Of a stretch of DNA of 64,000 nucleotides, positions 44,011 to 60,754 are shown in pieces. Position 1 is the first letter of the stretch, and every line of letters starts with the position of its first letter. The stretch is from Archangium violaceum (GTDB taxonomy: Bacteria; Myxococcota; Myxococcia; Myxococcales; Myxococcaceae). The notes under the pieces were generated by a model. The model ran no database searches, was not told where the DNA came from, and saw only the letters and a program-made list of their open reading frames with translations. Both the position numbers and the translations under genes were made by a program. Location: positions 7,937,501-8,001,500 of the forward strand of contig NZ_CP069338.1 in NCBI RefSeq assembly GCF_016859125.1, in the 5' to 3' direction.

Positions 44011-44070
44011 CTAGAGCGGACCCTGGGAAGTCGGGCGTTGCCAGTCTGCTGGCTTCCACCATGACGAACC

Positions 44071-44104: not shown

Positions 44105-44215
44105 TGGATTCAGGGGGAACCAGGGGGCCGGGATAGGGCGGGATGAAAACCCGGGGAAAATAAGGCGGTGGAGGGTAAAGGCGCGTCCTGCTTGGGGCTT
44201 TTCCACCGCATTGAT

Positions 44216-44240
44216 CGGGTTCGAATCCCTCCATGGGCAC
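44216..44240 (+). other. tRNA 3'-end-like fragment
   Basis: GGGTTCGAATCCC followed by TCCATGGGCAC looks like the T-loop and acceptor strand of a tRNA, and a terminator follows directly. No matching 5' half exists upstream and the T-stem is only three base pairs, so it is not a working tRNA. It may be the relic of a tRNA gene cut by an insertion. Confidence 0.45.
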
Positions 44241-44253
44241 TCTGAAGAAGCCT

Positions 44254-44282
44254 CCAAGTCCCTGAGACTTGGGGACTTTTTT
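44254..44282 (+). terminator. Rho-independent terminator
   Basis: CCAAGTC-CCTGA-GACTTGG forms a 7-bp stem (44254-44272), shortly followed by a T-run (ACTTTTTTAG). An alternative stem AAGTCCC/GGGACTT abuts the T-run directly. It follows the tRNA-like fragment, as expected for an old tRNA terminator, and would also shield the kinase gene at 44415 from upstream transcription. Confidence 0.7.
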
Positions 44283-44414
44283 AGTTCCGAAGCACCCGTT
44301 TGCTGTCTCCATCTTCGACTCCTGCCTCGCCGCTGCATCAGGCGCCACGCTCGCCTCCTCCGCTTCCGCTTGGGGGACGCGGAATCTCCTCGACGTGACT
44401 CCGGGGAACAGGAG

Positions 44415-47400
44415 ATGTCGACCTGCGTTTCGAGTCATGATTGGCGTGCGCGCATGAGGCAAGCTGGCGATCACATCGGTCCATACAGGTTGGTGCGGCC
44501 GCTGGGCAGAGGCGGGATGGGCGAGGTCTTCACCGCGCTCCACGAGCGCATGAACCAGGTGGTTGCCCTCAAGCTCCTGTCTCCGGCTGCGGTCGCTGAT
44601 CCGCAACTCGTGGCTCGGTTCGTCCAGGAGGCGCGGGCCCTCGCGCAATTTCAGCACCCGGGCGTGGTCCGCATCCTCCATTGCGACCGCACGGAGGATG
44701 GCACGGCCTTCCTTGCAATGGAGCACCTTGAGGGGCTGTCGCTGCGCGAGTGGATGCGGGACCAGCAGGGGCCCGCGCCGAGCGAAGCCGCGCTTTCGCT
44801 GTGCCAACAGATCGCCGCAGTGATGGCCGACATCCACGCCAAGGGCATCGTTCACCGGGACCTGAAGCCGGAGAACGTGTTCCTGTGCCCCGATGCCGAG
44901 GTCCCACCGGGGTACCGCATCAAACTGCTGGATTTCGGCATTGCGAAGGTGCCACCGGAGGCGAATGCCCGGGGCGACACGCAGGTGCACACCGCGGCGC
45001 CCGTTTTCCTGGGCACGGCCATGTACATGGCCCCTGAGCAGTGCCGGAACGCCGCGGAGGTGGATGGCGGCGCGGACGTCTACGCCCTGGGGGTGCTGCT
45101 CTTCGAACTCCTCGCCGGTCGGCCGCCGTTCGTCTCTGACGACGCGGTCGATCTGATTTCGATGCACATCCGTGCTGAGCCGCCGCCGTTGCGCGAGCTG
45201 GCTACGGCCGTTCCGGGCGCGCTGTCCGCATTAGTCGCCTCCATGCTGGCCAAGGAGCCAGCGTCCCGTCCGACGATGCTCCGCTGCCGGGATATGCTCG
45301 GACGGCGACCCTGGCAGAACGAGCGGGATGAGTGTCCGGTGCCAGGGCTCGCGCCCTTCACCGAAGCACATGCCGAGCTGTTCTTCGGCCGTAAGACAGA
45401 GATCTCCACCGTCCTGAACCTTCTGGATGAGGCGCGGTCCGGCGAGCGCCGATGGGTGCAGGTCGAGGGACCGAGCGGCGTAGGGAAATCGTCGTTGGTA
45501 CAGGCTGGCGTCCTTCCGCGCTTGAAGGAGCGCGCCTCGCAGCTCGCTCCCGCCTGGAGGGTTGCGGTCCTTCGCCCGTCGTACGATCCGGTGCATCAAC
45601 TTGCCGTGGCCGTGCGTGATGCGCTCGCCGGAAGCGACTTCACCTTCTCGGCTCGGGAGTTGGAGCGCGCGCTGCGCGCGGATGTTTGTGCGCTCTCGGA
45701 GATGGTGAGGGCGCACACGCCTCCGCAGGGTCGTTTCCTGCTGGTGATCGAGCAGATGGAGGAGCTCGTTACGCTGGGGGGCGCGGATTGTTCAGAGATT
45801 GACGGGTGGGTGGAGACAGCACTCGCCGCGCCTGATTCACCCCTGCGGTTGCTCACGACGATTCGGAGCGACTTCATCCACCGGCTGGAGCAGATGCCGC
45901 GGATGGCGGCGCGGCTCAACCAGTCTGCGCGCTATCACCTCCGACCGATGGAGGAGGAGGCGCTGACGCAGGTCATCGAGGGAATGGCCCAGCGCGTCGG
46001 GCTGCGGCTCTCCGAGGGACTGTCGCTGCGTATGGTTCGCGACGCGAGGAGCGAAGGAAGTCAGCTCCTGCTGCTTGGCCAGGCTCTCCGCGCGTTGTGG
46101 TCTCTGCGCAGCGGCGGCCGGCTGACCCATGAGCGATACGAACAGCTCGGCGGAGTCGGCGGAGCCCTGGCGCAGCAGGCGGAACGGTTGCTCGACGGGC
46201 TCGGCTCCCAAGGACGCGAACGCGCGAAGTGGATTCTCCTGGACCTCGTGCAGGTCGGCCGCGGTGTCCCAGACACGCGGCGGCCCCGCACCCGGCGGGA
46301 GGTGCTCGAGGCCGGCGGGGGAGACGCGTTGTCGCTGGAGGTCTTGATGAGGCTCTCCGGCATGCGGACCGGGACTCGGGACGACGCGGAGGAGGGGCTT
46401 CGGCTCATCGTGCTCTCTGCCGGAGATGAGCCCGCGGAGCAGCGTGTGGACTTGATACACGAGTCGCTCCTGCTGCAGGTTCCATCACTCGCGGATTGGA
46501 TCGGGAGCGAGCGCGTCTTGCTCGAGCGGCAGGCGGAGCTGGAGATCGCCGCGCAATCGTGGGAGCACGCCGGGTGTCCGATGGAAGGGTTGCCTTCCGG
46601 CTCGTTGCTCGCGCACTACGGGGATGCGGCGGGTCTATCTTCGCGAAGCGGTCCCCCGGGCCGCAGGGTGAGCGAGCGTGCCTCCCGCTACCTCACCGCC
46701 GCGCGAAGTCTTGAGCTCCGTCGTGTCCGGCTCAGGTGGGGACTGGCGCTCGCGGCGATGGCCGCGGTGCTGGCCATCTCCTTCAGCGCGCTCAGCGCAT
46801 ACCGCGAGTGGCGGCGAGCTCAGGAGAATCTCCAGCGCATCGTCCTCGCCACGCACCAGTTCGTCTCCGACGCCGACTGGAAGCTCGGCAGGGTCGCTCA
46901 TACGCTCGAGGTGCGGCGGGCCATGCTGCACAAGATCGACGAGAACCTGGCGTCTCTCCCGCGCGCAGACCGTCAAATCCCCGAGGTTCGCGAGGCAATC
47001 ATCGCGACGAAGCATCGACGCGGGGACTTCGCCTTCCAGAACGAATCGCTCGCTCGGGCCGAAGGCTTCCTGGATGCCGCGGCTGTGGAGATCCAGAGGG
47101 GGCTGGACGCTCGACCGGAGGATGAGGAACTCAAGCTTCTCCGGGCGCTGAACCACTCCAAGTTTGGGAAGATCGCGCTGGCCCGGGGCCGGCTCGACGA
47201 GGCGCGCGGCCACTTCGCTGGTGCGCTCGCATTCCTGGATCGGCCGACGGACCACGTCGATGATGACTATCGGCGGACCCTGGCGACGAGCTATTCGGAG
47301 CAAGGAGAGCTCGACCTGGCGTTCGGAGCTGCCGGAGCTGTCGAGTGGTTCGCTCGAGCCGTCGCTCTGTTCGAAGAGAATGCCCGGAGTGGTGATGCTT

Positions 47401-47885
47401 ACGAGCAAGCACTCCTCGCCGAGGCGCTGTGCTGGCGCGCGGAGGCGTTCCATCGTGAGAGAAGACTCCCGGCGGCCGCGGCCGATCTCGAGCGCGCGCT
47501 CGGTATTGCTCGCAGGCTGAACGAAGTGGAGGCGGGAAACGAGTTCTTCCGGTGGATCCTCGCTCGCGCTTACCTCGGGTCGGCCTCGGTGGAGGCGGCT
47601 CGTGGTGGGCCTCAGGCGGACGACCGATATCGTGCGGCGGAGGAGCTGGGGCGGGGGCTCGTCCGCGGCGAGCGAACCAACAAGCGCTATGGCCTCGTCC
47701 TGGCCCAGACTCTGTGGGAGCACGAGGCGTTGCTGAGTGACCGGGGAGCGGCTGCGCAGGCCCGGTCACTGCACGACGAACGCTGTGGGTTGGTCAGAGC
47801 ATTCGTCGGGATGGATGGCGAGGACCACCGGTTTGACCGGCTCGTCTGCCCTGGGTCCCCCGTCCCTCAAGGAACCGGCCAGTGA
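44415..47885 (+). CDS. Ser/Thr kinase fused to a STAND-like NTPase and TPR-like repeats
   Basis: The protein, about 1156 residues, begins with a full kinase: LGRGGMGEVFTALH, VALKLL, VHRDLKPEN near 148, LLDFGIAK near 173 and MYMAPEQ. A P-loop NTPase follows from about 320: FFGRKTEISTVLNLL, Walker A GPSGVGKSS near 351, Walker B-like RFLLVIEQMEEL. A membrane helix lies near 773-795 and TPR-like helical repeats fill the rest. Kinase-STAND-repeat proteins occur in signalling and in immune-type systems. Starts at 44415 (AGGAG directly before) or 44454 are both possible. It is the first gene of the right-hand defence island. Confidence 0.85.
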   Translation: MSTCVSSHDWRARMRQAGDHIGPYRLVRPLGRGGMGEVFTALHERMNQVVALKLLSPAAVADPQLVARFVQEARALAQFQHPGVVRILHCDRTEDGTAFLAMEHLEGLSLREWMRDQQGPAPSEAALSLCQQIAAVMADIHAKGIVHRDLKPENVFLCPDAEVPPGYRIKLLDFGIAKVPPEANARGDTQVHTAAPVFLGTAMYMAPEQCRNAAEVDGGADVYALGVLLFELLAGRPPFVSDDAVDLISMHIRAEPPPLRELATAVPGALSALVASMLAKEPASRPTMLRCRDMLGRRPWQNERDECPVPGLAPFTEAHAELFFGRKTEISTVLNLLDEARSGERRWVQVEGPSGVGKSSLVQAGVLPRLKERASQLAPAWRVAVLRPSYDPVHQLAVAVRDALAGSDFTFSARELERALRADVCALSEMVRAHTPPQGRFLLVIEQMEELVTLGGADCSEIDGWVETALAAPDSPLRLLTTIRSDFIHRLEQMPRMAARLNQSARYHLRPMEEEALTQVIEGMAQRVGLRLSEGLSLRMVRDARSEGSQLLLLGQALRALWSLRSGGRLTHERYEQLGGVGGALAQQAERLLDGLGSQGRERAKWILLDLVQVGRGVPDTRRPRTRREVLEAGGGDALSLEVLMRLSGMRTGTRDDAEEGLRLIVLSAGDEPAEQRVDLIHESLLLQVPSLADWIGSERVLLERQAELEIAAQSWEHAGCPMEGLPSGSLLAHYGDAAGLSSRSGPPGRRVSERASRYLTAARSLELRRVRLRWGLALAAMAAVLAISFSALSAYREWRRAQENLQRIVLATHQFVSDADWKLGRVAHTLEVRRAMLHKIDENLASLPRADRQIPEVREAIIATKHRRGDFAFQNESLARAEGFLDAAAVEIQRGLDARPEDEELKLLRALNHSKFGKIALARGRLDEARGHFAGALAFLDRPTDHVDDDYRRTLATSYSEQGELDLAFGAAGAVEWFARAVALFEENARSGDAYEQALLAEALCWRAEAFHRERRLPAAAADLERALGIARRLNEVEAGNEFFRWILARAYLGSASVEAARGGPQADDRYRAAEELGRGLVRGERTNKRYGLVLAQTLWEHEALLSDRGAAAQARSLHDERCGLVRAFVGMDGEDHRFDRLVCPGSPVPQGTGQ

Positions 47886-48022
47886 TGTGAGTTCATAGGG
47901 GACTTTGTGCGCTGGAGCCCTGGGGCTACCCCGTTCAAGCCCCTGGCGTGTCGTTGAGCTGGCGCTCGCGAAAAAAAAGTCCGACCCCGCGCGCGATCCG
48001 TCCGCGAATGGCGTCCTAGGGA

Positions 48023-48958
48023 ATGGAGCCGGAATCCCAACGGATGAACACGGACATGATCGACGCCCACCTGATTGCTCGCGAGGAAACATCGCGTGCA
48101 CCGCGGTTGCCCGCGCGAAGGGCGCTGTGGAAGGGTCGCCTGGGGATGAGCCGCAATGCGTTGTCGAAGGTGGCTGTAGAGGAGTTGATCCGCCGAGCCC
48201 GCGGGGGGGACAAGGCCGCGCTGGAGGAGCTCTTCCGGCGCTACCAACGCAAGTTGGTGAACTGGGCCGCGCGGAGCGCTCCTCAGCCGCCACCGGGTGG
48301 AGCGCGTGCCTCGGACATCGCGCAGGACACGGCGCTGCGCGCGTTCGACAAGTTCTCCTCGTTCAGTGGAACGACGGAGGCCGAGCTGCTGGCGTGGCTC
48401 AAGCGCATCCTCGCCAACCAGGCCGTGCAGTTGGTCCGGGGAGCGCGGCGGAAGAAGCGCTCCGCAGGCAGCACCGTGCCGCTGGACAGCGTTGAGGCCG
48501 AGGCAACCCCTTCCCACGGGAAGAGTCCGAACCAGGTCATTTTCGAGCGGGAAGCATGGCGCCAGCTCCTCATCTACCTCTATGAGCTCCCCGAGGCGCA
48601 GCAGGAGGCCATCAAGCTCTGTCACCTGGACGAGCTCCCGGTCGCGGATGTGGCGCGCCGGATGGGGAAGACGCAAGCGTCGGTGGCGGGGTTGCTCCTG
48701 CGGGGCCTGCGGACCTTGAGGGCTCGAATGCAGGAGGGCGCTGCCGGCGCCACCTCGGACGCGACGTGGGCAGCGCTGCTGACGTACCTGCAGAAGCGCG
48801 ATGCCGGGGAGAAGGTGGACCCGGATGCTTTCATCGCGGCCTACCCGGACTGCGCCGACGAGTTGCGGGCGAAGCTGGAGTTGCTGGGTCGCATCCGCGA
48901 TCTGCGTCCGAAGCCCCCCCCGGCGGCGCGGGCGGGTCAACGGACGAAGAAGACATGA
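48023..48958 (+). CDS. ECF-like RNA polymerase sigma factor
   Basis: The protein shows sigma region 2 (LEELFRRYQRKLVNWAARSA, then ASDIAQDTALRAFDKF with LAWLKRILANQAVQLVR) and region 4 (LPEAQQEAIKLCHLDELPVA, then DVARRMGKTQASVAGLLLRG). A C-terminal extension (DPDAFIAAYPDCADELRAKL) is typical of sigma factors paired with Ser/Thr kinases. The start could be 48023 (311 aa) or 48146 (270 aa), the latter directly before the conserved part. The stop overlaps the kinase start (ATGA), so sigma factor and kinase are coupled. Confidence 0.83.
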   Translation: MEPESQRMNTDMIDAHLIAREETSRAPRLPARRALWKGRLGMSRNALSKVAVEELIRRARGGDKAALEELFRRYQRKLVNWAARSAPQPPPGGARASDIAQDTALRAFDKFSSFSGTTEAELLAWLKRILANQAVQLVRGARRKKRSAGSTVPLDSVEAEATPSHGKSPNQVIFEREAWRQLLIYLYELPEAQQEAIKLCHLDELPVADVARRMGKTQASVAGLLLRGLRTLRARMQEGAAGATSDATWAALLTYLQKRDAGEKVDPDAFIAAYPDCADELRAKLELLGRIRDLRPKPPPAARAGQRTKKT

Positions 48959-49827
48959 CGAGGAGCGTGGCGATGCGTGTTGGAGAATACGTCCTTGCCC
49001 ACCGGGTGGCGTCCGGAGCCACGTGCGATGTGTATCAGGGGTACCACGCGGTCACCGGGCAAGCCGTGGCGGTGAAGATACTCTCCCCCAGCCTCTGCTC
49101 GGACGAGGAGGTGGGAGGGCGCTTCCTCAATGAAGCGCAGGCGCTCCAGCAGCTGCGTCACGAGCACCTGGTCCAGGCCGTCACTTCGGGAGTTCTACCT
49201 ACAGGACAGCCCTTCCTCGTCTTGGAGTGGCTTCCCGGAGATCTGCATCGACTACTCAAGCGCGCCGGAGGCCAGCTCCCGGTCCAGGCCGCCACCCGTG
49301 TCGCCGCGCAGCTCGGCGCCGCGCTTACGTTCCTGCATGACTCCCGGATCTTCCACCGCGACCTGAAGCCGGCCAACATCCTGGTGGCCACCGATAACCT
49401 CGCGATCATCGAGGTCAAGCTCGCGGATCTCGGACTGGCCAAGATCCCGCGCGAGGAGGGCCATGAAGGGGAAAAGGGGCTCGCGGCCTCTGCCATTTCG
49501 ACGGCCAAGCGTGCCCTCCTCGGAACGTGGGACTACATGGCCCCGGAGCAGTGGGTGCAATCCAAGACCGTGGGTGGCCCCGCGGATGTGTACGCGCTTG
49601 GCATTCTCCTGTTCCAGATGTTGGCGGGCAGGCTGCCATTCGTCGCCGAGCAGCAGAAAGATCTGATGTACCTGCACCTCTTGGAGAAGCCCCCACTCGA
49701 GCTGCTGGAGGGCCTGGCTCCCCAGGCTACTCGCGACCTGATTGCGGGAATGCTGCGCAAGAAACCGCTGGAGCGACCGGCAATGCGCGAGGTCGCTCGG
49801 CGGCTGGCGGACACACCTCTCATGTAG
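48955..49827 (+). CDS. Small Ser/Thr protein kinase coupled to the sigma factor
   Basis: This 290-residue stand-alone kinase has VAVKILSPSL, IFHRDLKPANIL near 121-132 and WDYMAPEQW. The metal-binding DFG is replaced by DLG (LADLGLAK), which is compatible with activity in this family. No membrane segment or sensor domain follows. It is encoded 39 bases before the SAVED gene, so kinase and CBASS-like genes may be one transcript. It could phosphorylate the sigma factor or one of the defence proteins. Confidence 0.88.
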   Translation: MTRSVAMRVGEYVLAHRVASGATCDVYQGYHAVTGQAVAVKILSPSLCSDEEVGGRFLNEAQALQQLRHEHLVQAVTSGVLPTGQPFLVLEWLPGDLHRLLKRAGGQLPVQAATRVAAQLGAALTFLHDSRIFHRDLKPANILVATDNLAIIEVKLADLGLAKIPREEGHEGEKGLAASAISTAKRALLGTWDYMAPEQWVQSKTVGGPADVYALGILLFQMLAGRLPFVAEQQKDLMYLHLLEKPPLELLEGLAPQATRDLIAGMLRKKPLERPAMREVARRLADTPLM

Positions 49828-49866
49828 CCCGGACTCCTCGGGTCTCCACACTTCAGCCTGGATGAC

Positions 49867-51594
49867 ATGAACACGATACATGCCGTGCTTTGCCTCGATG
49901 TGGATGCTCCCGTCGCGGACGACGACATCCTGCCCCTTCTTCCTCCGGCACGGAGGGAGCTGAAATTCCTGCGCCTGAGCACCTTCGCTACCCAGGGGCC
50001 GAAAGGAAAGCGACCAACGTCCAGCCCTGTGGACTGGATCGCGCTCGCGAACGCCGTATCCCGGCTGGCGGGCGAGGCGCTCGCGCTCCGGGACTCATCC
50101 TCCACGCCCGTGGAGTTCTTCGTTGTGGGCCTGGCGCCGTTGCCGCTCTTCGTTCTCCTGGGGGCTGAGCTTTCTGCGTGGGCGAAACCCCAGACGTTCC
50201 TCAACGTTCGAAAGGACACCACGTGGGATGTCCTGAGGCTGGATGACAAGCGCCCGAGTGGGGTTCGCTACTTCGACACGGTGGTCGGGCTGAGTGATGT
50301 GCCTTCGGAGGCAAACGGCCTAGTGGGGGTCTTCATCTCAACCCAAGCCATGCTGCCGCGCGACGCCGTACGTGACTTCTTGAGGGCGCAGGGGAATGGG
50401 ATCGCCGGCGTGGTCGAATGCCGGAACAGCACCAGCACGCCAGTGGATGCCGCCCATGCACCCGTGATCGCGGAGGAGCTGGCGCAGGTGCTGGCCGCCA
50501 CCCGGCGCACGTATCCCAATCACTCGGGCCTGGCGCTCTTCGTCTCGGGACCGGCGTCGCTCGCGTTCATGGCGGGTCGGGCCTTCAACCCGAGGGCGAT
50601 GGGGAGGGCGTGGGTGGCCAGCTATGCACCGCCCGGATACGAGCTGGCGTTCACCTTGCCATGGAAGCCCGTATCGCGGGTGGAGTTGCGCCGTGGACCG
50701 AAGCAGGAGCAGGCGCGTCAGAAGGTCCTGCTGGCGGTGTTGGCGGGCGTCCGGACATTGAAGAACACCCTCAAGCGTGAGGATCTCCCGCCGTTCCTTG
50801 CTCCGTCCGAGGGAGAGAAACTCCTGGCGCGTCTCCACCAACTGGAGATCGCCGATGAACCAGAGGGGGATGAGACGCGCTTGAGCGTCGGACAGCGGCG
50901 GCTGACTTTCGGGCGCGGGCTGCTCGAAGGCATGCGCCAGCTGGACGAGCACCACCGGGAGCTCCTGGCCTTGCAGTATCTGCTGCATGAGCTCTTCCAC
51001 TTCGACCAGGATCTGACCTCCCAGAACTACCGTGGCGTCGGACGCGGGGGCTTCGCCTTGGAGGAGGTGGATTATTGGGCGGACACCCTGGCGATCGGCA
51101 CGCTGGCGCGCTGGCGGATGCGAGAGGGGGGCCCACAACTCCAGCGCGAGCCTGGAAGGGTTCTCGCCGAAGAGATCGACGTGAGCCTGCGGGGCATCGA
51201 GACCTTCGATCGTATGGAGAGCGGCGATCGCATGGGAGAATTGCTGGAGCGGCGTTTGCGGCGCTACCTCATCTGGGCGCTCCAGCTCGCACGCGCCAGG
51301 ACGCTTCGCCCCGATACGGACATCTGGAAGGTGCTTGGAGAGCGTCTGATTGTCGAGTTGGCCCCTCTCCGAGGAAGCTTTGACAACGTGCACGACAAGG
51401 TCGTCGTCGAGGCGCTTCCCGATACCGAAATGTTCGTGGTCTGGGGAAAACGTCTGATGCGATTGCAGCGACGACCCGCGTTCGATCCCGCGGCCCTCGT
51501 GGACGTCGTGCGGACGTTCGATCAGCGCTTGCTTCGCACGAGGATGGAATACGTGGCGGAGGAGGAGCGCGCGGTGCTGACCCCGTGGGTTTGA
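49867..51594 (+). CDS. SAVED-domain protein fused to an HExxH metallopeptidase-like domain
   Basis: The 575-residue protein has a SAVED-like cyclic-nucleotide sensor in about residues 50-270: VEFFVVGLAPLPLFVLLGAE, SGLALFVSGPASLAFMAG and ELAFTLPW. In the C-terminal half LLHELFHFDQD supplies an HExxH zinc motif (His374, Glu375, His378). Downstream, ALEEVDYWADTL offers the third ligand Glu399/400, the gluzincin pattern. Known CBASS SAVED effectors mostly carry nucleases (Cap4, Cap5); Lon-SAVED (CalpL) belongs to type III CRISPR. A gluzincin-like SAVED protein is not one I know. It probably is the effector of the following nucleotidyltransferases. The sequence between residues 280 and 370 is unassigned. 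Confidence 0.75.
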   Translation: MNTIHAVLCLDVDAPVADDDILPLLPPARRELKFLRLSTFATQGPKGKRPTSSPVDWIALANAVSRLAGEALALRDSSSTPVEFFVVGLAPLPLFVLLGAELSAWAKPQTFLNVRKDTTWDVLRLDDKRPSGVRYFDTVVGLSDVPSEANGLVGVFISTQAMLPRDAVRDFLRAQGNGIAGVVECRNSTSTPVDAAHAPVIAEELAQVLAATRRTYPNHSGLALFVSGPASLAFMAGRAFNPRAMGRAWVASYAPPGYELAFTLPWKPVSRVELRRGPKQEQARQKVLLAVLAGVRTLKNTLKREDLPPFLAPSEGEKLLARLHQLEIADEPEGDETRLSVGQRRLTFGRGLLEGMRQLDEHHRELLALQYLLHELFHFDQDLTSQNYRGVGRGGFALEEVDYWADTLAIGTLARWRMREGGPQLQREPGRVLAEEIDVSLRGIETFDRMESGDRMGELLERRLRRYLIWALQLARARTLRPDTDIWKVLGERLIVELAPLRGSFDNVHDKVVVEALPDTEMFVVWGKRLMRLQRRPAFDPAALVDVVRTFDQRLLRTRMEYVAEEERAVLTPWV

Positions 51595-51631
51595 CCGGGA
51601 TGCGAGGACCTTGCGTAACGGTGATACTCAC

Positions 51632-52573
51632 ATGCGGGATCTGACCGATTTACTGCGCAGGATACTTAGCAGCGTCGAGCCTTCGCAGGAGGAGACGGAG
51701 GGCGCGCAGCGCAGCCACCGCTACCTCCGGGACATCCTGGTGACCGGAAACATGGAGTCGATCATCCGGGATCATTTCCTGAGCGGTAGCTACCCACGGG
51801 CAACCGCCATTCGTCCGCTCGATGACGTGGACATCATCTTCGTCGTGGATCCTGGCCATTGGAAGACGCCGAGTGTCGGCGCTTTCCCTGACCCTGGCGC
51901 GGTGCTTCAGACCTTCAAACGGGCATTGCAGTGGCGGTATCCGGAGACGGAGCTCCGGGTTCAACGTCGATCCATTCGGCTCCAGATGTGGCATCTGAAT
52001 GTGGACGTGGTCCCCGCGCTCAGCGCGGACGGAAGAGGCAGCGAGCGGCTCCTCATCCCGGACGCCGAAAATGATGGGTGGATCCGCTCCGCGCCCAAAA
52101 TACACGGTGCGCTGGCGACGGAGATCAACCAGAGGCAGGGAGAATTATTCAAGCCGTTGGTGAAGCTGCTCAAGACCTGGAATCGGGGCGCGCCCGAGGA
52201 GCTGCGTTTCAAGTCGTTCTGTGTCGAGACGATTGCTGCGAGGCTGTTCGCTTCAGCCAGGCTACGCTCTCTTCAGACCGGCCTCGTTCAGTTCTTCGAT
52301 TTCGTTTGCTACATCGGCGGTGGCCCGTGTGAATACTCCTGGGGAGGTGATCGTGGCATGTCACTCCGCTTCGGGAATTGTGTGGTGCCGGATACGGCCG
52401 AGGGCATGAACGTGGCGGCCAGCGTCACGAGGCAAGGTCGCGAGTGTTTCCTCCGCCGGGCCGCGGCCAGCCGGAAACGGATCCTCCAAGCGGAGCAAGC
52501 CAGGACATGGAATGAAGCAGAGCGCAAGATCGAGCAGGCGTTTGGAAGCCACCTGCGAGAGCTGGGTTGGTGA
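51632..52573 (+). CDS. CD-NTase (cGAS/DncV-like nucleotidyltransferase), copy 1
   Basis: The 313-residue protein has the nucleotidyltransferase signature LSGSYPRATAIRPLDDVDII, with Gly52-Ser53, Asp65 and Asp67, and the third acidic residue Asp125 in WHLNVDVVPAL. All catalytic acids are present, so it should make a cyclic oligonucleotide. ATG 51632 is chosen; an in-frame TTG at 51611 is less likely. It lies 37 bases after the SAVED gene. The C-terminus ends ELGW, without the terminal Gly of the second copy. Confidence 0.85.
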   Translation: MRDLTDLLRRILSSVEPSQEETEGAQRSHRYLRDILVTGNMESIIRDHFLSGSYPRATAIRPLDDVDIIFVVDPGHWKTPSVGAFPDPGAVLQTFKRALQWRYPETELRVQRRSIRLQMWHLNVDVVPALSADGRGSERLLIPDAENDGWIRSAPKIHGALATEINQRQGELFKPLVKLLKTWNRGAPEELRFKSFCVETIAARLFASARLRSLQTGLVQFFDFVCYIGGGPCEYSWGGDRGMSLRFGNCVVPDTAEGMNVAASVTRQGRECFLRRAAASRKRILQAEQARTWNEAERKIEQAFGSHLRELGW

Positions 52574-52638
52574 CCCTCGGGGCGCTCCCGTGCGCGCGAT
52601 CTTCGCGCCAACGGCATCTACTCTCTCAGGAGGACACC

Positions 52639-53598
52639 ATGCAGGTTCGACAAGCAGTTCATGACTTCATTTCCGCACTCGAGCTCACCACCGCCGAGAG
52701 GACGGCAGCCAGCGACCAGCACAAGTTCCTGCGCGATGGACTCGCCAGCCGGCTGGAGATCGAGCCCGACCATTACCCATTCCTCACCGGTTCCTACGCG
52801 CGGAGCACGGCCATCCGTCCGCTCAAGGACATCGACCTGTTCTGCGTGTTGAAGCGCACGCCCGTGCTCGACCCGGCCATCAGCAGCCCGATGGATGCAC
52901 TCAAAACGGTGCGAGAAGCGCTCGAGGATCAGTACTCGGGCAAGACCGCCGATCCCCAGAACCGCTCGGTGAACATTTCCTTCTCCATCACGGGAATCGC
53001 CTACGATGTCGTCCCTGCGTTCCTCGACAAGGGCAACAGCGAGATCTTCTGGATCCCGGACCTTCAGGCGAAGACCTGGATCCGTTCCAACCCACGTATC
53101 CACGAACGCTTGTCGGTGGAGGCCAACGAGGCCGCGGGCAATGAGCTAAAGCCCCTCACCAAGGCGGTGAAGCACTGGAACCGGCGACAGCCGGACGGGG
53201 CGCGACTGCGGTCGTTCCACATCGAGGTGATGATCTGGGATGTGCTCGTGGCGAAGCCCGATAACCGGCTCGATGGCCTCATCCAGACTTTCGAGGGCCT
53301 GGCTTCTCGCGTGCTCCTCGACACGCCGGATCCGGCGGCGCTGGGGCCACACATCAACCAGGGCATGACCGACGCGGAGAAGACCGCCGCGAAGACACGG
53401 TTGAGCCAGGCGGCCGCGACGCTGAAGGAGGCGCGGGATCTCGCGCAGGCTGGCCACACGGAGCGGGCCCATTACCTCCTGTATGGGATTTTTGGGGATC
53501 CCTACCCGGAGAAGGGAAAGGAGGGGCGCTCAATCGTCACCGGCGTTTCAGCATCCTTGCCGTCCGCGCCGGATGGTCACGGCTCCAGGTTCGGGTAG
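52639..53598 (+). CDS. CD-NTase (cGAS/DncV-like nucleotidyltransferase), copy 2
   Basis: The 319-residue protein has LTGSYARSTAIRPLKDIDLF (Gly51-Ser52, Asp64, Asp66) and Asp123 in AYDVVPAF, so all catalytic acids are kept. AGGAGG lies five bases before ATG 52639. It is a clear paralogue of copy 1, but diverged. It ends GHGSRFG: a C-terminal glycine is what Cap2 conjugates in type II CBASS, and the Cap2-like gene begins six bases downstream. Confidence 0.86.
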   Translation: MQVRQAVHDFISALELTTAERTAASDQHKFLRDGLASRLEIEPDHYPFLTGSYARSTAIRPLKDIDLFCVLKRTPVLDPAISSPMDALKTVREALEDQYSGKTADPQNRSVNISFSITGIAYDVVPAFLDKGNSEIFWIPDLQAKTWIRSNPRIHERLSVEANEAAGNELKPLTKAVKHWNRRQPDGARLRSFHIEVMIWDVLVAKPDNRLDGLIQTFEGLASRVLLDTPDPAALGPHINQGMTDAEKTAAKTRLSQAAATLKEARDLAQAGHTERAHYLLYGIFGDPYPEKGKEGRSIVTGVSASLPSAPDGHGSRFG

Positions 53599-53604
53599 AC
53601 GACA

Positions 53605-55374
53605 GTGCCATTCCCCGACAGTGACCGGCGGCGGTGGTTGGAGGAACTGCGTGTTCTCCACCAACGGCACCCCAACATCCTACGGATTGAGGATCGTCCG
53701 GTGACCTTCGCCGAAGGCACGGTCGATACCGCAGTCGGATCTCGGCGATACCGGCTCGTATGGCCGCCGGAGTTTCCCTTGCGCCCGCCTGTTACCTGGG
53801 AGTTGTCGGCCGATGGCGCAGAAGTGATCGACCATCGCGCCCATGGGTACACGTTCCAGGATCTGAGTCTGTGTTTGTTCGCGCATGACCCTCGACGGGG
53901 ATGGCGACCAGAGTACACAGCGGCAGAGGCACTCGATCGGCTCGTGACGTACCTGGAGCAGGAGGCTCGCGGCGAGTTCCCTCGAATCGAGGACATTCCC
54001 CTGACGATGCACTCCATCCGGGTCTCCGTGCCGCTGAGCATCGCGGCGGCGCTGCGTCAGGGGGGCGGATGGGGAATGTTGATGGCACTTGGTAGGGAGG
54101 ACGGGCGACTCCTGCGCGTGATGAGCGTGGATGGAACCTCGCCCTCGCCGCTCATCACCAGACCTCTTGAGGCCGACCTGGAGGCGCCGTGGGTCGCCGC
54201 GCTGGGGTTGAACCATCCGCTGCAGGGCTTGTGGTGCAGGATCAACAAGACCGTGGATCAGCTCCCTTCGTCGCGGCACAGGCTCGAAGGGTGGATTCGG
54301 CAGCAGCTCCCGAACGAACTAGCACGACAGTTGTTCATGGAGCAGGCATTGATCCTGCTGGTGTTGAACGATGGGTTGAGATTCGTCGTCATGAGGACCG
54401 GAACCTCTCCGGACACGAACCCTGAAGAGAGGTTGATCTATGTAAAACCCTTCGAAGAGAACCTCGAGGAGCGCATATTCCGGCGCGTTGACGATCGCCT
54501 GGGGGGCAGCAGGGGGCTCCAGAGCGCGCAGGTCGCGATCGTTGGGGTAGGCAGCCTTGGCAGCAGTGTAGCGGTCGCGCTTGCGAAGGCCGGCGTGGGG
54601 AGGTTCGTGCTCCTCGACCCGGAGTTCCTCGACCCAGAGAACGTGGCGCGGCATGTGGGCGGCGTGGACGAGATCTGTTTGCCCAAGGTGGAGGTCGTGA
54701 GCAGAGCGATCCGTCGGATCAACCCCGCCGCGGAAGTGGTCCAGGTGCAAGCAGCGCTCTCGTTGGATCCTGTCGGCTGGGGCAAGGACCCGACGCAGCA
54801 CCTCATCGAGGTGACACATAACCCGCTGGGCATCGTCGTCTGCGCCACCGCCACGACCGAGGCGGAGAGCGTGGTCAACCATCTGTGTGTGACCCGCGCA
54901 TGCCCCGGGATCTTCGCCGCCGTATTGGGACGCGCGGAGCACGGGCGGGTATTCAGGGTCCTGCCGGGGGTAACGCCCTGCTATCAGTGTGTGCTGAACG
55001 CTCAACACGCGGAGCCCGGCCGATTTCCTCGCTTCGACCGCGTTGACATGGGCGTCCCCGCCTATCAGCAACCAGGACTCCCCGGGCTCGGAATGGACGT
55101 TGAGCAAGTCGCGCTGCTCACCGCGCGGATGACGTTGCAGTCTCTCGGAGAGCGGATCGATGGTGGGCTCGATTATCCGAAGGCTCACGGGGACCACCTG
55201 ATCTGGTCCAATCACGGAGGATGGGCAGTCGATGGTCCGCTTCAGGCGAGGGTGGAGCGCATCCCACGAGATCGCGCATGCCCCGTATGTGGGGTTGGGG
55301 ATGAACTTCCCCTGGCCTCGGAGGAGGAGAAAGAATTGGCTGCTCTGCAAGTGAACCGTTTGAAGAGGTCTTGA
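53605..55374 (+). CDS. cap2: E2-E1 ubiquitin-conjugation-like fusion (Cap2 type)
   Basis: The 589-residue protein has an N-terminal E2-like domain with a candidate catalytic Cys90 in QDLSLCLFAHDP. A linker domain follows, then a ThiF/E1-like adenylating domain with AIVGVGSLGSSVAVALAKAG (about 311-330) and LLDPEFLDPEN. CYQC (459-462) and CPVC (559-562) form a likely zinc site. Cap2 of type II CBASS attaches the nucleotidyltransferase C-terminus to targets and primes it. Translation starts at GTG 53605. No JAB-type isopeptidase (Cap3) gene follows; the next DNA is an IS remnant. Confidence 0.85.
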   Translation: MPFPDSDRRRWLEELRVLHQRHPNILRIEDRPVTFAEGTVDTAVGSRRYRLVWPPEFPLRPPVTWELSADGAEVIDHRAHGYTFQDLSLCLFAHDPRRGWRPEYTAAEALDRLVTYLEQEARGEFPRIEDIPLTMHSIRVSVPLSIAAALRQGGGWGMLMALGREDGRLLRVMSVDGTSPSPLITRPLEADLEAPWVAALGLNHPLQGLWCRINKTVDQLPSSRHRLEGWIRQQLPNELARQLFMEQALILLVLNDGLRFVVMRTGTSPDTNPEERLIYVKPFEENLEERIFRRVDDRLGGSRGLQSAQVAIVGVGSLGSSVAVALAKAGVGRFVLLDPEFLDPENVARHVGGVDEICLPKVEVVSRAIRRINPAAEVVQVQAALSLDPVGWGKDPTQHLIEVTHNPLGIVVCATATTEAESVVNHLCVTRACPGIFAAVLGRAEHGRVFRVLPGVTPCYQCVLNAQHAEPGRFPRFDRVDMGVPAYQQPGLPGLGMDVEQVALLTARMTLQSLGERIDGGLDYPKAHGDHLIWSNHGGWAVDGPLQARVERIPRDRACPVCGVGDELPLASEEEKELAALQVNRLKRS

Positions 55375-55891
55375 CCGAGCTGCGGTGGCTCCTGCGCTGG
55401 AGCCACCTTCACAGGCCGCATGGTCAGTCCCAGGTGCTCCAGGATGGAGCGGGCTCCACCGGGTGCCATGATGGTGGTTCGCACGGTGCGTAGCGGGAGT
55501 CCTCCTGGCGGAGCTCAATGGGTCCACTCTCTCCCTCTTATAGCTGGAGGATCTCGGCACACCGCCAGGCCGCGACATGGCGTCCATACTGCTCGGGCGT
55601 GAGGAACCTTGCTTTCTTGCGGCTCATCCTTCCTCCACGGGTATGCCAGGAAGTGGCGGCGAGACACCTTACCGCCAGTCGCGAGGACGCTGATTCAGAG
55701 GGAGCCGCTGAGGCTCGCTTGCTGGGCTCCACTCCCAGAGGGGGTTCTTCACGGCATGTCCTACCCAGCGGGTGGTGTATAGCGCCACACGAAATCCTTT
55801 GAAGAACGTCCCCTGGAGCGGTCAGACTCCGCATGCGGCGCCGGAGTGGGACCGTCTCTCCCTTGCTGTCCCATCTCGAGCCCGGGGGAAC
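55375..55891 (-). mobile_element. Remnants of transposase genes
   Basis: On the minus strand, 55375-55490 reads TTIMAPGGARSILEHLGLTM followed by RPVKVAPAQEPPQL, like the extreme C-terminus of zinc-binding IS91-type transposases. Near 55540-55627 the start MSRKKARFLTPEQYGRHVAA looks like the beginning of a different transposase-associated protein, cut after 29 residues. Both are fragments. The insertion scar separates the CBASS-like operon from the BREX operon and may have removed genes. Confidence 0.5.
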
Positions 55892-56614
55892 ATGACTGAG
55901 CGTTCACAGATGGCCCAGCTCTTCACGGAGGCGACCCTCCACGCCCTCGCCCGTGAGGAGGTGGTCGGGCGGAGGAACAAGCGGCTGCTCGAGCCGCAGC
56001 GCATCTCCTGGGAGCGCTTTCGCGGCCGCCTGGGGAGTGCGGCGCTCGCCTCCCTGCTGCTCGAGGACGGGGCTGTGACGCACCCCGCGGCCTTCGATGC
56101 GGCGGGCCTCCTCGGCGATTCGGAGCCCCTGGCGGCCCTGTCGGATTCCCAGGTGGAGGCGCTCCTCGCGGGGCTGACCGAGGCGTCTGTGGCCGGCGCC
56201 GGGGCCGACTACCTCCAGGCCCAGGCTCAGCGGCTTGGCATCACCTACCGCTTCGCCCGTTCGAAACTGCCGAGCGGCATCCGGGCCCACCACAAGGTGC
56301 TGGAGCTGCCGGGTAGCGGCGGACTCATCGCCCACCACGTCTGTAGCACCCTGGAGGGCGTCTACTTCCAGGACGTCTTCACCGTGGCCTGTGCGAGCTG
56401 GCAGGAGCGGCTCCTGGCCGGCCTGGTGGCGCTGGAGCTGGGGGTGGGTGGGGTGCTCCCCATCCTGGAGGACCCCACGCTCGAGCAGGTTCGCCAGCGT
56501 CTGCCCACGCCGGACTTCGTCCTCGGGCTGTCGCCGGACAAGGGCGGCCGCTTCAGCAAGGAGGAACTCCGGCCCTGGTTCTCCTCCACCACGACGGAAA
56601 TCGTCCTCGTTTGA
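55892..56614 (+). CDS. Unknown protein encoded directly before pglW
   Basis: The 240-residue protein starts MTERSQMAQLFTEATLHALA and contains a helical first half and a second half with SGIRAHHKVLELPGSGGLIA, then ALELGVGGVLPILEDPTLEQ. No domain is recognised; it is cytoplasmic by appearance. It is encoded nine bases before pglW on the same strand, so it very likely belongs to the BREX type 2 operon. An in-frame start at 55772 would reach into the IS remnant and is rejected. Confidence 0.65.
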   Translation: MTERSQMAQLFTEATLHALAREEVVGRRNKRLLEPQRISWERFRGRLGSAALASLLLEDGAVTHPAAFDAAGLLGDSEPLAALSDSQVEALLAGLTEASVAGAGADYLQAQAQRLGITYRFARSKLPSGIRAHHKVLELPGSGGLIAHHVCSTLEGVYFQDVFTVACASWQERLLAGLVALELGVGGVLPILEDPTLEQVRQRLPTPDFVLGLSPDKGGRFSKEELRPWFSSTTTEIVLV

Positions 56615-56623
56615 GCCGCCCCC

Positions 56624-59600
56624 ATGCCCGCTCAACACCATTCGCTGGGCGAACCCGCCCATGAGGCCGAACGTCAGGCCATCCGGCTCATCGTCGAGGG
56701 TCTGCCGGAGGACTACACCGTCTATTCCAACGCCTGGCTCGTGGAGCGCACCGGCGTGGTGCACGAGCTGGACGTGGTGGTGGTGGCCCCTCATGGCCTC
56801 TATGTCGTGGAGCTCAAGGCGTACCGCGGCGTGGTGCGCGGCACGGACCACGACTGGGACGTCCCCCAGGGCCCCATCCGTAGCCCGCTGAAGAAGAACC
56901 GGCACACCACCCAGGTGCTCGCCAACGAGCTCAAGCGCCTCTCCGCCGAGGCCGCGCGCCGTTGGGTGGAGCACTTCGTCTTCCTCTCTCACGCCTCGGC
57001 CGTCCAGGTGGAGGGCCCCGCCAGCCGCGGTCGCATCCACACGCGCCACACCCTCCTCGAGGCGCTTCAGGACGAGCGCGGCTTCCACGACCGCTGCCCT
57101 CGCGGCGTCTCCCCCGAGGTGGATGAGCATACCCGGCGCACCGTCCACACGCTCCTCTCCCAACAGGATCCGGCCCAGCGCCCCACGACGCGCATCCGCG
57201 GCTGGCGGATTGAATCCACGCTCGAAGCCACCGAGCGCTGGGTGGACCACATGGCGCTCAACGAGCTGGCCCAGACCCGGGCCGTTCTGCGCGTCTATGC
57301 CCTCTCGCCCCTGGCCACCGACGCCGAGCGCAACCACCTGGTGGAGCGGATGCGCTGGGAGGCCCAGGTCCTCCACCGGGTAGGACAGCACCGCGCCATC
57401 CTCCGCGCCGAGCCCTTCTTCGAGGATGACGCGGGCAGGCTCTGCCTGCCGCTCGAAGATTTCCAGGGCGTGACGCTGCCCACCTGGCTCGCCCACCACC
57501 GCAAGCAACTCTCCGGGCGCGAGGGGCTCAAGGCGCTGGCGCACCTGTGGGACGAGGTGGCCGACGCCGTGGCTCATGCCCATGGCCAGGGCGTGGTGCA
57601 CCGGCTGCTGCGGCCCGAGGTGGTGCTGTTGGAGGACAAGGCCCCCGACGCCCAGGTGCGCCTGACGGGATTCGATCTCGCCAAGCAGCTCCAGAGCGGT
57701 CGCACCGTGCACATCACCTCTCTGCAGGACGAGCGCATGCGCTTTGCCGCACCCGAGGTGACGCAGAGCTTCACCAACGCCACGGTGCACTCGGACCAGT
57801 GGGGGCTGGGCTTCCTGCTGGGCTGGTTTCTCACCGGCCGTGCCCTCTTCGAGTCCACCGCGGAGCGCATCCGCCGGGGCGGACCGGTGCTCAGCGTGGC
57901 CATGCACAACGCCCTGGTGCCGCGCTCGCTCGACGAGGCGGTGGGGCGCATGCTCTCACTGCGCCCGGCGGACCGCTTCTCCTCGCTGAAGGAGGCTCGC
58001 GAGGCCGTGGCCGCCGCCGTGGACCCCTCGCGCCGCGCGGGTCGTCGGCCCGAGAGCCCTCAGGTGGACCCGGACGACCTGCCCGAGGACTATCGTCTTG
58101 GCGCGGACTACGAAATCAAGAATAAGCTCGGAGAGGGGGGGCTGGCCACCGTCTACGCCGCCCTGCACCTGGTGAGCGGGCAGATGCGGGCCCTCAAGGT
58201 GGCGCGCAACACCGCCGAGGCCGAGGAGGCGCTCATGGCCGAGTGGCGCGTCCTGGAGCAGCTCGACCACAAGAACATCGTCCGGGTGAAGGACCCGAGC
58301 AACGCGCTGGTGCCGGGGCGCCGCACCCTGGTGATGGACCGAGTCAAGGGTGCGTCCCTCTCGAAGTGGCTTGCCGCGCACCCCAGCCCGGACCGCGACT
58401 CGCAGCGACGCTTCGCCGAGGACCTCTTCGCCGCCCTCGAGTACCTGGAATCCCGCGGCATCACCCACAAGGACCTCAAGCCGGACAACCTCGTGGTGGG
58501 TGAAGCGGGGCTCACCGTCATCGACTTCTCGCTCGCCGGCCACCAGCCGGACGACATCCTCGTGGGCTCCGTCCTCTGGAGGGATCCCACCCTCAAGGCG
58601 TGGGATGCCGCGGCCGACCGCTACGCCGCCGCGCTCGTCCTCCACCAGCTCTTCACGGGCCGCCACCCCTTCGACGGGCGCGTGCCCTCGCCGGACGAGC
58701 TGCCCCACATCGAACCGGACGACTTCGATTCGCCCGGCCTCGCCCGCTTCTTCCAGAAGGCGCTGAGCCCGGAGCGCCGGCAGCGCTTCGCCTCGGCGCG
58801 CGAGATGCGCGAGTTCTTCCGCGAGGCACTGGGCGAACGTGAGCGCTCCCCCCGCTCGGGTCTGCCCTTGCTGTCAGTGGATGCCTCCAACGAGCCGGAG
58901 GCCCCGCTGGGGGCGAGCCGGCTGTCCGGCACCGCAGTGGCCGTGCTTGCCCGGGCGGGAGTTCGGACCAAGGGCGAGCTGGTGGCGTTGCAACCCCAGC
59001 AGCTTTCGACCATCAGCGGGCTCGGCAAGAAGCGGCGCGAGGAGGTGCTCGCCTTCCGCGAGGAGCTGCTGAGCCGCGGCATCCAGCCCTCCGCACAGCA
59101 GAGCGTGCGCCGCGTCCTGCTTCCCGAGGCGGAAGGAGACGAGGCCGAGCTGTCCGTCCTCCAGCTCCCCTCGCCTTTGGAGGGCGCGCTGGTGTCCGCT
59201 GGCTTCCGCTCCGTGGGCCGACTGGCTGGGGCCACTCGCGAGGACCTCACCGCCGTGTCCGGCGTGGGTTCCGGGAAGCTGGCGCAGGTGGTGGAGGCGC
59301 TGGAGCTGTATGTGAACCGGCGCGTGGGGCCGGGGAGCGAGGGCCCGCGCCGCCCCTCCGTGGAAAAGGTGTGGGCAGAGGCCCGCCGGCGTCTGGAGGG
59401 GCGCGAGGAGGCTGTGCTGGCCGCCACCTTCGGGTTCCACGGACCGCCCGCGCAGCGCCAACAGGACGTCGCCGAGCAGCTCGAGCTGTCTCAGCCCGAG
59501 GTGAGCCGCACCCTCAACAACGCTCTCGTCAAGGTGGACCGCGAGGCGCTGGAGGAACTGCGCGAGAGCCTCCATGCGGAGTTGGACGCGGCCGCGGGCG

Positions 59601-60754
59601 TGATGAAGCTGGACGAGTTGGTGGAGCGGCTGCACGAGGCATGGGTGCCCTCGCCTCGGCTGGAGACTGCGGGGCTGGTGCGGCTCATCCAGCGGATGCA
59701 CGAGACGCGGCTGCACCGCATGCCGTTGCCCGAGGAGCCCGAGCAAGAGGTCCTCTTCCTTGCACCGCTGGAGGAGAAGACGCTCCGTTCCTTCGTCGAG
59801 ACGGCGCTGCGGCTGGCCGGGTGGGACGATGGCGAGCCCACCGAGCCGGGCGCGGCCCGTCGCACCTTGCGCGGGGTGCTGCCCGAGTACCTGGGTGACT
59901 TCCTGCGGCTGGCCGTGTACCTGGTGCCCTCACTGCGGCTGACCGCGGACGGGGAGCTGTTCCAGTCTCCCCTGGAGGGCTCGCAGGTGCTGCGCCACGT
60001 GCTGCGCCGCGCCCGGCTGCCGCTGAAGGTGGACGAGCTGTACCGGCAGATGGAGGTCACCTTCGGCGAGCACGGCTGGAACCCCCCAACGCGCGAGGCT
60101 CTGCCCGAAGTGCTGGCGCAGGTGCTGCCTGACTACCGGGTGGTAGGTGACGAGGTGGTGCCCGCCAGCGTTCGCGTGGAGCCGGAGAAGTCCCCCACGA
60201 AGGACCCGCTGCCCTCGGACTTCCTCGTCTCGCAGCGCACCTACAGTGAGGTGGTAGCGGAGCGGCTGCGCGAGGCGGCGAAGGGGCGCGGTTACCGGCT
60301 CGTCGTCGCGCCGCCAGCGTGCCACGTCGAGGTGGCCGACAGCCTCAAGCGCACCCTCGGCGAGAATGCCGTCCTCGTCAGCTTCGAGAAGGAGTTGCTC
60401 CAGCGGATGGAGCCCGACTTCGGCGCCTTCGAGCGGGCCGAGCGCTTCCTTGCGCAGCGGCCGAAGCTGAAGAAGGAGGCGGAGGCGCTGCTGGACGCGC
60501 TGCTTGCCGAGCACGGCCGCCCGGGGAAGGTGGTGGTGCTCGGGGACACCGGCATCCTCGGCGTGTGCGGCGTGGAGAAGGACGTGCCGCGGCGGCTGTA
60601 CGACCGCGTGACGGAGCGCGATCTGGGCTTCTGGGTGTTGGTCATTCCCGGCGTGGTGAGCGAGCGGCAGCCGCTCTTCAACGAGAAGACGCCCGTTCTC
60701 AATCTGCAGGTACTTCCCGTGGATGCACCGCTGGACGCGGAGGCGAGGGACTGA
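56624..60754 (+). CDS. pglW: PglW-like NERD/double-kinase protein of BREX type 2
   Basis: The 1376-residue protein starts with a NERD-like nuclease-related domain (VHELDVVVVAPHGLYVVELK). Two kinase-like domains follow. The first looks inactive: VVHRLLRPEVVLL near 325 and GFDLAK replace HRD and DFG. The second is better conserved: GEGGLATVYAALH near 502, ALKVAR, THKDLKPDN near 613 and DFS. Two helix-hairpin-helix motifs (ISGLGKKRREEVLAF near 796; VSGVGSGKLAQVVEAL near 878) and long helical regions follow. This is the PglW architecture. The stop overlaps the pglX start (TGATG). Confidence 0.88.
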   Translation: MPAQHHSLGEPAHEAERQAIRLIVEGLPEDYTVYSNAWLVERTGVVHELDVVVVAPHGLYVVELKAYRGVVRGTDHDWDVPQGPIRSPLKKNRHTTQVLANELKRLSAEAARRWVEHFVFLSHASAVQVEGPASRGRIHTRHTLLEALQDERGFHDRCPRGVSPEVDEHTRRTVHTLLSQQDPAQRPTTRIRGWRIESTLEATERWVDHMALNELAQTRAVLRVYALSPLATDAERNHLVERMRWEAQVLHRVGQHRAILRAEPFFEDDAGRLCLPLEDFQGVTLPTWLAHHRKQLSGREGLKALAHLWDEVADAVAHAHGQGVVHRLLRPEVVLLEDKAPDAQVRLTGFDLAKQLQSGRTVHITSLQDERMRFAAPEVTQSFTNATVHSDQWGLGFLLGWFLTGRALFESTAERIRRGGPVLSVAMHNALVPRSLDEAVGRMLSLRPADRFSSLKEAREAVAAAVDPSRRAGRRPESPQVDPDDLPEDYRLGADYEIKNKLGEGGLATVYAALHLVSGQMRALKVARNTAEAEEALMAEWRVLEQLDHKNIVRVKDPSNALVPGRRTLVMDRVKGASLSKWLAAHPSPDRDSQRRFAEDLFAALEYLESRGITHKDLKPDNLVVGEAGLTVIDFSLAGHQPDDILVGSVLWRDPTLKAWDAAADRYAAALVLHQLFTGRHPFDGRVPSPDELPHIEPDDFDSPGLARFFQKALSPERRQRFASAREMREFFREALGERERSPRSGLPLLSVDASNEPEAPLGASRLSGTAVAVLARAGVRTKGELVALQPQQLSTISGLGKKRREEVLAFREELLSRGIQPSAQQSVRRVLLPEAEGDEAELSVLQLPSPLEGALVSAGFRSVGRLAGATREDLTAVSGVGSGKLAQVVEALELYVNRRVGPGSEGPRRPSVEKVWAEARRRLEGREEAVLAATFGFHGPPAQRQQDVAEQLELSQPEVSRTLNNALVKVDREALEELRESLHAELDAAAGVMKLDELVERLHEAWVPSPRLETAGLVRLIQRMHETRLHRMPLPEEPEQEVLFLAPLEEKTLRSFVETALRLAGWDDGEPTEPGAARRTLRGVLPEYLGDFLRLAVYLVPSLRLTADGELFQSPLEGSQVLRHVLRRARLPLKVDELYRQMEVTFGEHGWNPPTREALPEVLAQVLPDYRVVGDEVVPASVRVEPEKSPTKDPLPSDFLVSQRTYSEVVAERLREAAKGRGYRLVVAPPACHVEVADSLKRTLGENAVLVSFEKELLQRMEPDFGAFERAERFLAQRPKLKKEAEALLDALLAEHGRPGKVVVLGDTGILGVCGVEKDVPRRLYDRVTERDLGFWVLVIPGVVSERQPLFNEKTPVLNLQVLPVDAPLDAEARD

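What the first reader, a model, noticed from the sequence alone, without database searches (positions are those of the whole stretch)
51632..53598. Two complete CD-NTases side by side in one operon
Both genes keep the GS motif and all three acidic residues, so neither looks dead. CBASS operons usually have one cyclase. Two active cyclases could make two signals, form a heteromer, or respond to different triggers.
Basis: partly seen in the sequence, partly recalled or inferred. Interest (0 to 1): 0.8.

Follow-up and report, generated by a model that had tools for sequence, protein, structure and literature searches.

The report
CBASS operon with two nucleotide cyclases
A myxobacterial anti-phage operon carries two intact signal-making enzymes (CD-NTases) but one effector, and one of the two belongs to an uncharacterised family that often joins other CBASS operons as a second cyclase, so it looks like a recurring two-inputs-one-effector design rather than a one-off.

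Summary
Two intact CD-NTase genes (CDN1 51632-52573, CDN2 52639-53598) lie between a SAVED-M48 peptidase effector and an E1-E2 gene (Cap2-like). They are not recent duplicates (37% identity over the N-terminal 220 residues; separate supported clades).

CDN2+Cap2 is one unit (84-87% identical in two relatives). There it serves a Cap4-type effector in a normal one-cyclase system. Its tail ends in an invariant Gly, as Cap2 substrates do.

CDN1 belongs to a different CD-NTase family that no PADLOC or NCBIfam cyclase model fits well. In 14 of 15 loci it directly follows another gene, in 13 a recognisable effector (NucC, Cap4/SAVED, SAVED-M48). In 9 of 14 classifiable loci, across Myxococcota and Pseudomonadota, the operon holds a second cyclase, mostly with its own regulators (HORMA/TRIP13 or Cap2). 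In at least two loci CDN1 is the only cyclase, beside NucC.

Best reading: CDN1 is a regulator-free add-on cyclase, so two separately triggered cyclases feed one effector. Shared effector and messenger are inferred, not shown. SAVED-M48 systems of relatives have at most one cyclase. This is a new variant of CBASS; I found no description of it in the papers I could search.

The parts
44652..47885 (+). large Ser/Thr kinase with AAA/TPR-type C-terminal part (first gene of the conserved regulator set; ORF 43923-47885, similarity to G092 starts at 44652)
   Evidence: block 93.7% identical to G092 spans window 44652-55376; 47-55% homologues in the same order in relatives
48023..48958 (+). ECF sigma factor
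   Evidence: Pfam Sigma70_r2 4e-9, Sigma70_r4_2 3e-8; homologues in the same place in relatives
48955..49827 (+). small Ser/Thr kinase (ORF 48766-49827)
   Evidence: Pfam Pkinase 3e-44; homologues in the same place in relatives
49867..51594 (+). SAVED-M48 effector: SAVED sensor (residues 85-263) plus metallopeptidase with HExxH at residue 374
   Evidence: PADLOC PDLC02018 SAVED_peptidaseM48 5.5e-198; Pfam SAVED 2.7e-17; motif
51632..52573 (+). CDN1: CD-NTase of the add-on family, no C-terminal conjugation tail (ends LGW)
52639..53598 (+). CDN2: CdnD-like CD-NTase, predicted Cap2 substrate
53521..53595 (+). CDN2 disordered C-terminal tail (residues 295-319) ending ...SAPDGHGSRFG, last 16 residues invariant in 4 loci
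   Evidence: pLDDT under 50 over 295-319; rule for Cap2 substrates from PMC10097602
53605..55374 (+). Cap2-like E1-E2 protein (E2 Cys90; CxxC 459/462 and 559/562); no JAB/Cap3 recognised beside it
   Evidence: PADLOC E1-E2 2.7e-25, Pfam ThiF 7.6e-29, Cys map and JAB-motif scan

Best explanation
This is a CBASS locus in which two cyclases with separate controls feed one effector. CDN2 is a CdnD-like cyclase paired with an E1-E2 protein that probably conjugates or primes it through its C-terminal Gly. CDN1 is a regulator-free cyclase of a distinct family that occurs as an 'effector + cyclase' couplet and here supplies the SAVED-M48 peptidase. On infection either cyclase would make a cyclic oligonucleotide (most likely a cyclic trinucleotide) that binds the SAVED domain and switches on the peptidase. 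The locus probably arose by merging a myxobacterial kinase-ECF-kinase-SAVED-M48 system, which lost its own cyclase, with an effector-CDN2-Cap2 system that lost its Cap4 effector, plus CDN1. Shown here: gene content, intact catalytic residues, purifying selection, the CDN2-Cap2 unit without CDN1, CDN1 relatives without a partner, and recurrence of the two-cyclase layout. Inferred: product identity, sharing of the effector, separate triggers, conjugation, and a defence role.
For: CDN2+Cap2 (87%/84% identical) follow a Cap4-type SAVED effector, with no CDN1, in G075 and G077. The CDN1 family is one supported clade (13 rows, 98/98) apart from the CDN2 clade (22 rows, 99/98). CDN1 relatives are the second cyclase after CdnC-HORMA-TRIP13-NucC (L071, L075), CdnC-HORMA-TRIP13-Cap4 (L072), CdnD-HORMA-TRIP13-NucC (L079), CdnD-HORMA-TRIP13-Cap4 (L122, L123) and a divergent CD-NTase plus Cap4-like SAVED (L064). 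They are the only cyclase beside NucC in L065 (behind a divergent WYL-domain gene), L070 and L124; NucC identified by 6p7o at 3e-50 and 2e-52 and by PADLOC at 1e-106. NucC responds to cAAA (PMC10419184), so a lone CDN1 relative beside NucC most simply makes cAAA. Second cyclase within about 6 kb: 9 of 14 CDN1-family loci against 5 of 87 other SMODS loci, Fisher 1.5e-6 (hand count, rows not independent). CDN2 keeps purifying selection although Cap4 is gone. The genome's only other SAVED gene has its own cyclase next to it.
Against: No product, binding or phage data exist. Sharing one effector is deduced from gene order; one cyclase could signal elsewhere in the cell. Two Burkholderiales pairs (L122, L123) are near copies of each other and some loci are MAG contigs, so independent events number perhaps five or six. 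The E1 half of Cap2 has Pro where E. coli ThiF has its catalytic Cys184, so full conjugation activity is unsure. NucC in L079 is frame-broken as sequenced. Five CDN1-family loci have no second cyclase, so pairing is not a property of the family as such.
Confidence: 0.55

Rival explanations
1. Two signals: CDN1 and CDN2 make different cyclic oligonucleotides; one activates SAVED-M48, the other tunes it, competes with it, or acts as a decoy that exposes phage sponges (the logic of Panoptes, although that uses mCpol, not a CD-NTase).
For: The two cyclases are from different clades. A decoy-nucleotide guard of CBASS exists in principle (PMC12657218).
Against: No second sensor or effector is in the operon. 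CDN1 relatives sit alone with NucC, a cAAA-activated nuclease, where a decoy role makes little sense.
Confidence: 0.2
2. Accretion without cooperation: two CBASS systems were joined by recombination; the layout is transitional and one cyclase is redundant or signals to something elsewhere.
For: G075 carries the two would-be parents side by side: kinase-ECF-kinase-CDN-SAVED-M48, then Cap4-CDN2-Cap2.
Against: Both cyclases are under purifying selection, and the arrangement persists at 93.7% identity over 10.7 kb in another genus. Similar two-cyclase layouts recur in unrelated bacteria.
Confidence: 0.17
3. Obligate heteromer: CDN1 and CDN2 form a mixed complex in which one is catalytic and the other regulatory.
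For: Adjacent genes, related folds.
Against: Both keep all catalytic residues. CDN2 occurs without CDN1 in G075/G077, CDN1 relatives occur alone, and partner clades vary. Complex modelling was not available here.
Confidence: 0.06

Closest known systems
Type II CBASS (CD-NTase + Cap2 E1-E2 + Cap3 JAB + effector)
   Same: CDN2 next to an E1-E2 gene, C-terminal Gly tail, SAVED effector
   Different: no Cap3/JAB recognised, ThiF-type E1 Cys not found, and an additional cyclase of another family
Type III CBASS of E. coli MS115-1 (CdnC-HORMA-TRIP13-NucC)
   Same: relatives of CDN1 follow exactly this gene set in L071 and L075
   Different: those loci have a second cyclase after NucC; the window has no HORMA/TRIP13
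Type I CBASS (cyclase + effector only; some with the CapW WYL repressor)
   Same: L065 and L124 (NucC + CDN1 relative) look like complete minimal systems; L065 has a divergent WYL-domain gene
   Different: in the window the cyclase is embedded with a second cyclase and its E1-E2
Calp (CalpL SAVED-Lon protease, CalpT anti-sigma, CalpS ECF sigma) of type III CRISPR
   Same: SAVED-fused protease encoded with an ECF sigma factor
   Different: M48-type metallopeptidase, CD-NTases instead of Cas10, Ser/Thr kinases instead of a recognisable CalpT
Panoptes (mCpol + 2TM-beta effector)
   Same: a second cyclic-nucleotide source near CBASS in some genomes
   Different: mCpol is not a CD-NTase; no 2TM-beta effector here

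Membership tests
CBASS | CD-NTase (SMODS) with intact G-S and acidic triad | tested here: met
   both genes
CBASS | adjacent cyclic-oligonucleotide-sensing effector | tested here: met
   SAVED-M48 at 49867-51594
CBASS | signal-dependent effector activation and phage protection | not testable with these tools
   needs biochemistry and plaque assays
CBASS | one cyclase per system (usual, not strictly defining) | tested here: not met
   two cyclases in one operon; three within one locus in G092
Type II CBASS | E1-E2 protein (Cap2) next to the cyclase | tested here: met
   ThiF 7.6e-29, E1-E2 model 2.7e-25, E2 Cys90 conserved
Type II CBASS | cyclase ends in Gly or Ala (PMC10097602) | tested here: met
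   CDN2 ends RFG in 4 of 4 loci; CDN1 ends in Trp and does not qualify
Type II CBASS | E1 catalytic Cys | tested here: inconclusive
   Pro at the ThiF C184 position; other Cys present, true E1 Cys not located
Type II CBASS | Cap3/JAB isopeptidase | tested here: not met
   no JAB-like motif within about 3 kb (less in L086, contig end of the stretch) after Cap2 in window, L063, L082, L086
CdnD-like CD-NTase (CDN2) | closest solved relative is CdnD, by sequence and fold | tested here: met
   6p8u 2.5e-34; Foldseek 6p82 7e-20, 32% identity; full clade A-H tree with references not built
any modelled CD-NTase family (CDN1) | strong hit to a curated cyclase model | tested here: not met
   window CDN1 at most 142 bits in PADLOC (partner cyclase of L122 reaches 484); NCBIfam 125 bits against a cut-off of 200
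Calp-like protease/sigma cascade | SAVED protease cleaving an anti-sigma factor that holds the ECF sigma | not testable with these tools
   ECF sigma and SAVED protease present; a CalpT counterpart was not searched for

The most novel reading that the evidence does not exclude
A CD-NTase family exists whose recurrent role is to be an add-on cyclase: an unregulated effector-cyclase couplet that plugs into type II and type III CBASS, giving one effector two separately triggered inputs, as an OR gate or as a backup when phages block HORMA/TRIP13 or Cap2 control.
Probability: 0.4. Interest if true: 0.75.

Novelty: new variant of a known kind. Interest (0 to 1): 0.52.

Why it matters
How CD-NTases sense phages is largely open. 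Operons in which a regulated and an unregulated cyclase share one effector give a clean comparison: the same effector and genome with two sensors, and natural versions lacking one or the other. It would also show that CBASS types I, II and III can be combined, and that one-cyclase-per-system classifications miss a recurrent architecture.

Tried and rejected
Recent tandem duplication: rejected (37% identity over the N-terminal 220 residues, separate clades, different partners). One copy dead: rejected (motifs, fold, dN/dS). Pair unique to this genome: rejected (G092, plus seven further CDN1-family loci with another cyclase). Missing Cap3 hidden downstream: JAB-motif scan empty. CDN1 on plasmids: no relative above 37% among listed hits; SAVED-M48 absent from plasmids. 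Panoptes-type decoy: no mCpol or 2TM-beta gene recognised among the operon's annotated genes. Literature: ten searches found no paper describing two-cyclase CBASS operons, but the main classification papers (Whiteley 2019, Millman 2020) and Burroughs 2015 are not in the library, so prior mention there is possible. My simple gene caller missed some low-GC genes; key neighbours were re-read from six-frame lists. Heterodimer modelling was not available.

Full report
Observation. The window lies in a 12.7 Mb single-contig myxobacterial genome (phylum inferred from the Archangium and Myxococcaceae records among its relatives). Two SMODS-family genes, CDN1 (51632-52573) and CDN2 (52639-53598), follow a SAVED-M48 peptidase gene (49867-51594) and precede an E1-E2 gene (53605-55374), with gaps of 37, 65 and 6 bp. 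Both keep the G-S motif and three Asp, fold as CD-NTases and are under purifying selection relative to G092 (dN/dS about 0.3 and 0.14-0.19).

What surrounds the pair. A 10.7 kb block from window 44652 to 55376, i.e. to the stop of the E1-E2 gene, is 93.7% identical in G092, another genus of the family. It contains a large Ser/Thr kinase, an ECF sigma factor, a small Ser/Thr kinase, SAVED-M48, CDN1, CDN2 and Cap2. In other myxobacteria the kinase-ECF-kinase set is followed by ONE cyclase and then a SAVED-M48 protein (14 complete examples L082, L088-L098, L100, L102 and one cut by a contig start, L101; in L099 the SAVED part is). In the window the cyclase slot before SAVED-M48 is empty (39 bp) and the two cyclases come after it. 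The genome's second SAVED-M48 system (L106) again has one cyclase.

Where CDN2 comes from. In G075 and G077, CDN2 and Cap2 (87% and 84% identical) follow a Cap4-type SAVED effector without CDN1. In G075 this unit lies directly behind a kinase-ECF-kinase-CDN-SAVED-M48 system, so both would-be parents of the window's operon are side by side there. All four CDN2 proteins end in the same 16 residues ...SAPDGHGSRFG, predicted disordered in the window protein. Jenson et al. (PMC10097602) show that Cap2 acts on a C-terminal Gly or Ala and that Trp abolishes conjugation; CDN1 ends in Trp. So CDN2, not CDN1, is the likely Cap2 substrate. Caveat: the position of ThiF's catalytic Cys184 is Pro in this Cap2, and no JAB was recognised.

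What CDN1 is. Window CDN1 hits no PADLOC cyclase model above about 142 bits and is below the NCBIfam cut-off. A scan of 84,980 genomes and three HMM searches of about 980 genomes gave 16 members in 15 loci of Myxococcota and Pseudomonadota. The 13 rows placed in the tree form one supported clade (98/98). In 14 of 15 loci the gene directly follows another gene within a few tens of bp: NucC (L065, L070, L071, L075, L079, L124), Cap4/SAVED (L064, L072, L074, L122, L123), SAVED-M48 (window, G092), or an uncharacterised 280 aa protein (L076; effector role assumed). L078 is the exception.

Recurrence of two cyclases. Nine of 14 classifiable loci have another cyclase in the operon: CdnC with HORMA and TRIP13 (L071, L072, L075; CdnC of L071 matches 6p80 at 2e-143), CdnD-like with HORMA and TRIP13 (L079, L122, L123), CDN2-Cap2 (window, G092), and a divergent CD-NTase (L064). 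G092 has a third one, CDN1-like, 232 bp behind Cap2. By my count, 5 of 87 other SMODS loci have a second cyclase within about 6 kb (Fisher 1.5e-6). The loci are related by descent, so the p-value overstates the evidence; distinct partner and effector combinations number five or six.

Mechanism. Because CDN1 relatives can be the only cyclase beside NucC (L065, L124; also L070), and NucC is activated by cAAA (PMC10419184), the family most simply makes cAAA or a similar trinucleotide. In L071 and L075 it shares NucC with a CdnC relative. Hence the best reading is one effector with two separately controlled cyclases: one under HORMA/TRIP13 or Cap2 control, the other with no dedicated regulator. 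In the window the effector is a SAVED-M48 metallopeptidase (HExxH, residue 374); with an ECF sigma factor in the operon, a CalpL-like proteolytic cascade (PMC11417357) is a reasonable guess for its target, but untested.

What is not shown. No product, ligand, trigger or protection was measured. Full A-H clade naming was not done. The papers most likely to mention two-cyclase operons were not in the library, so novelty is claimed only for the family-level pattern and with that reservation.

Noticed in passing
window 44652-51594; L082, L088-L102, L106: SAVED-M48 CBASS of myxobacteria sits in a conserved operon: large Ser/Thr kinase - ECF sigma - small Ser/Thr kinase - CD-NTase - SAVED-M48. A SAVED protease with an ECF sigma factor recalls CalpL/T/S; this association may deserve its own study.
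   Followed up: partly
L063 7583-8548 (-): G092 carries a third CD-NTase of the CDN1 family 232 bp behind Cap2, absent from the window, where similarity to G092 stops right after Cap2 and a BREX-like region begins.
   Followed up: partly
window 55892-64000: Directly downstream lies a BREX/Pgl-like defence locus: a 240 aa ORF without family hits, PglW (56624-60754) and a large DNA methylase-like gene.
   Followed up: no
L066 9225-11466 (-) and L067: Another kind of two-cyclase locus: two overlapping CD-NTase ORFs (one with an N-terminal TM-like segment) beside a SLATT-like membrane gene in two genomes of the same order.
   Followed up: no
L068, L069, L086: SAVED-CHAT systems with a sigma factor and large CHAT proteins lie within about 10 kb of a second CD-NTase (with HORMA/TRIP13, or the Cap4-CDN2-Cap2 unit).
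   Followed up: no
L079 9258-9922: NucC reading frame is interrupted (two frames) as sequenced in a MAG contig.
   Followed up: no
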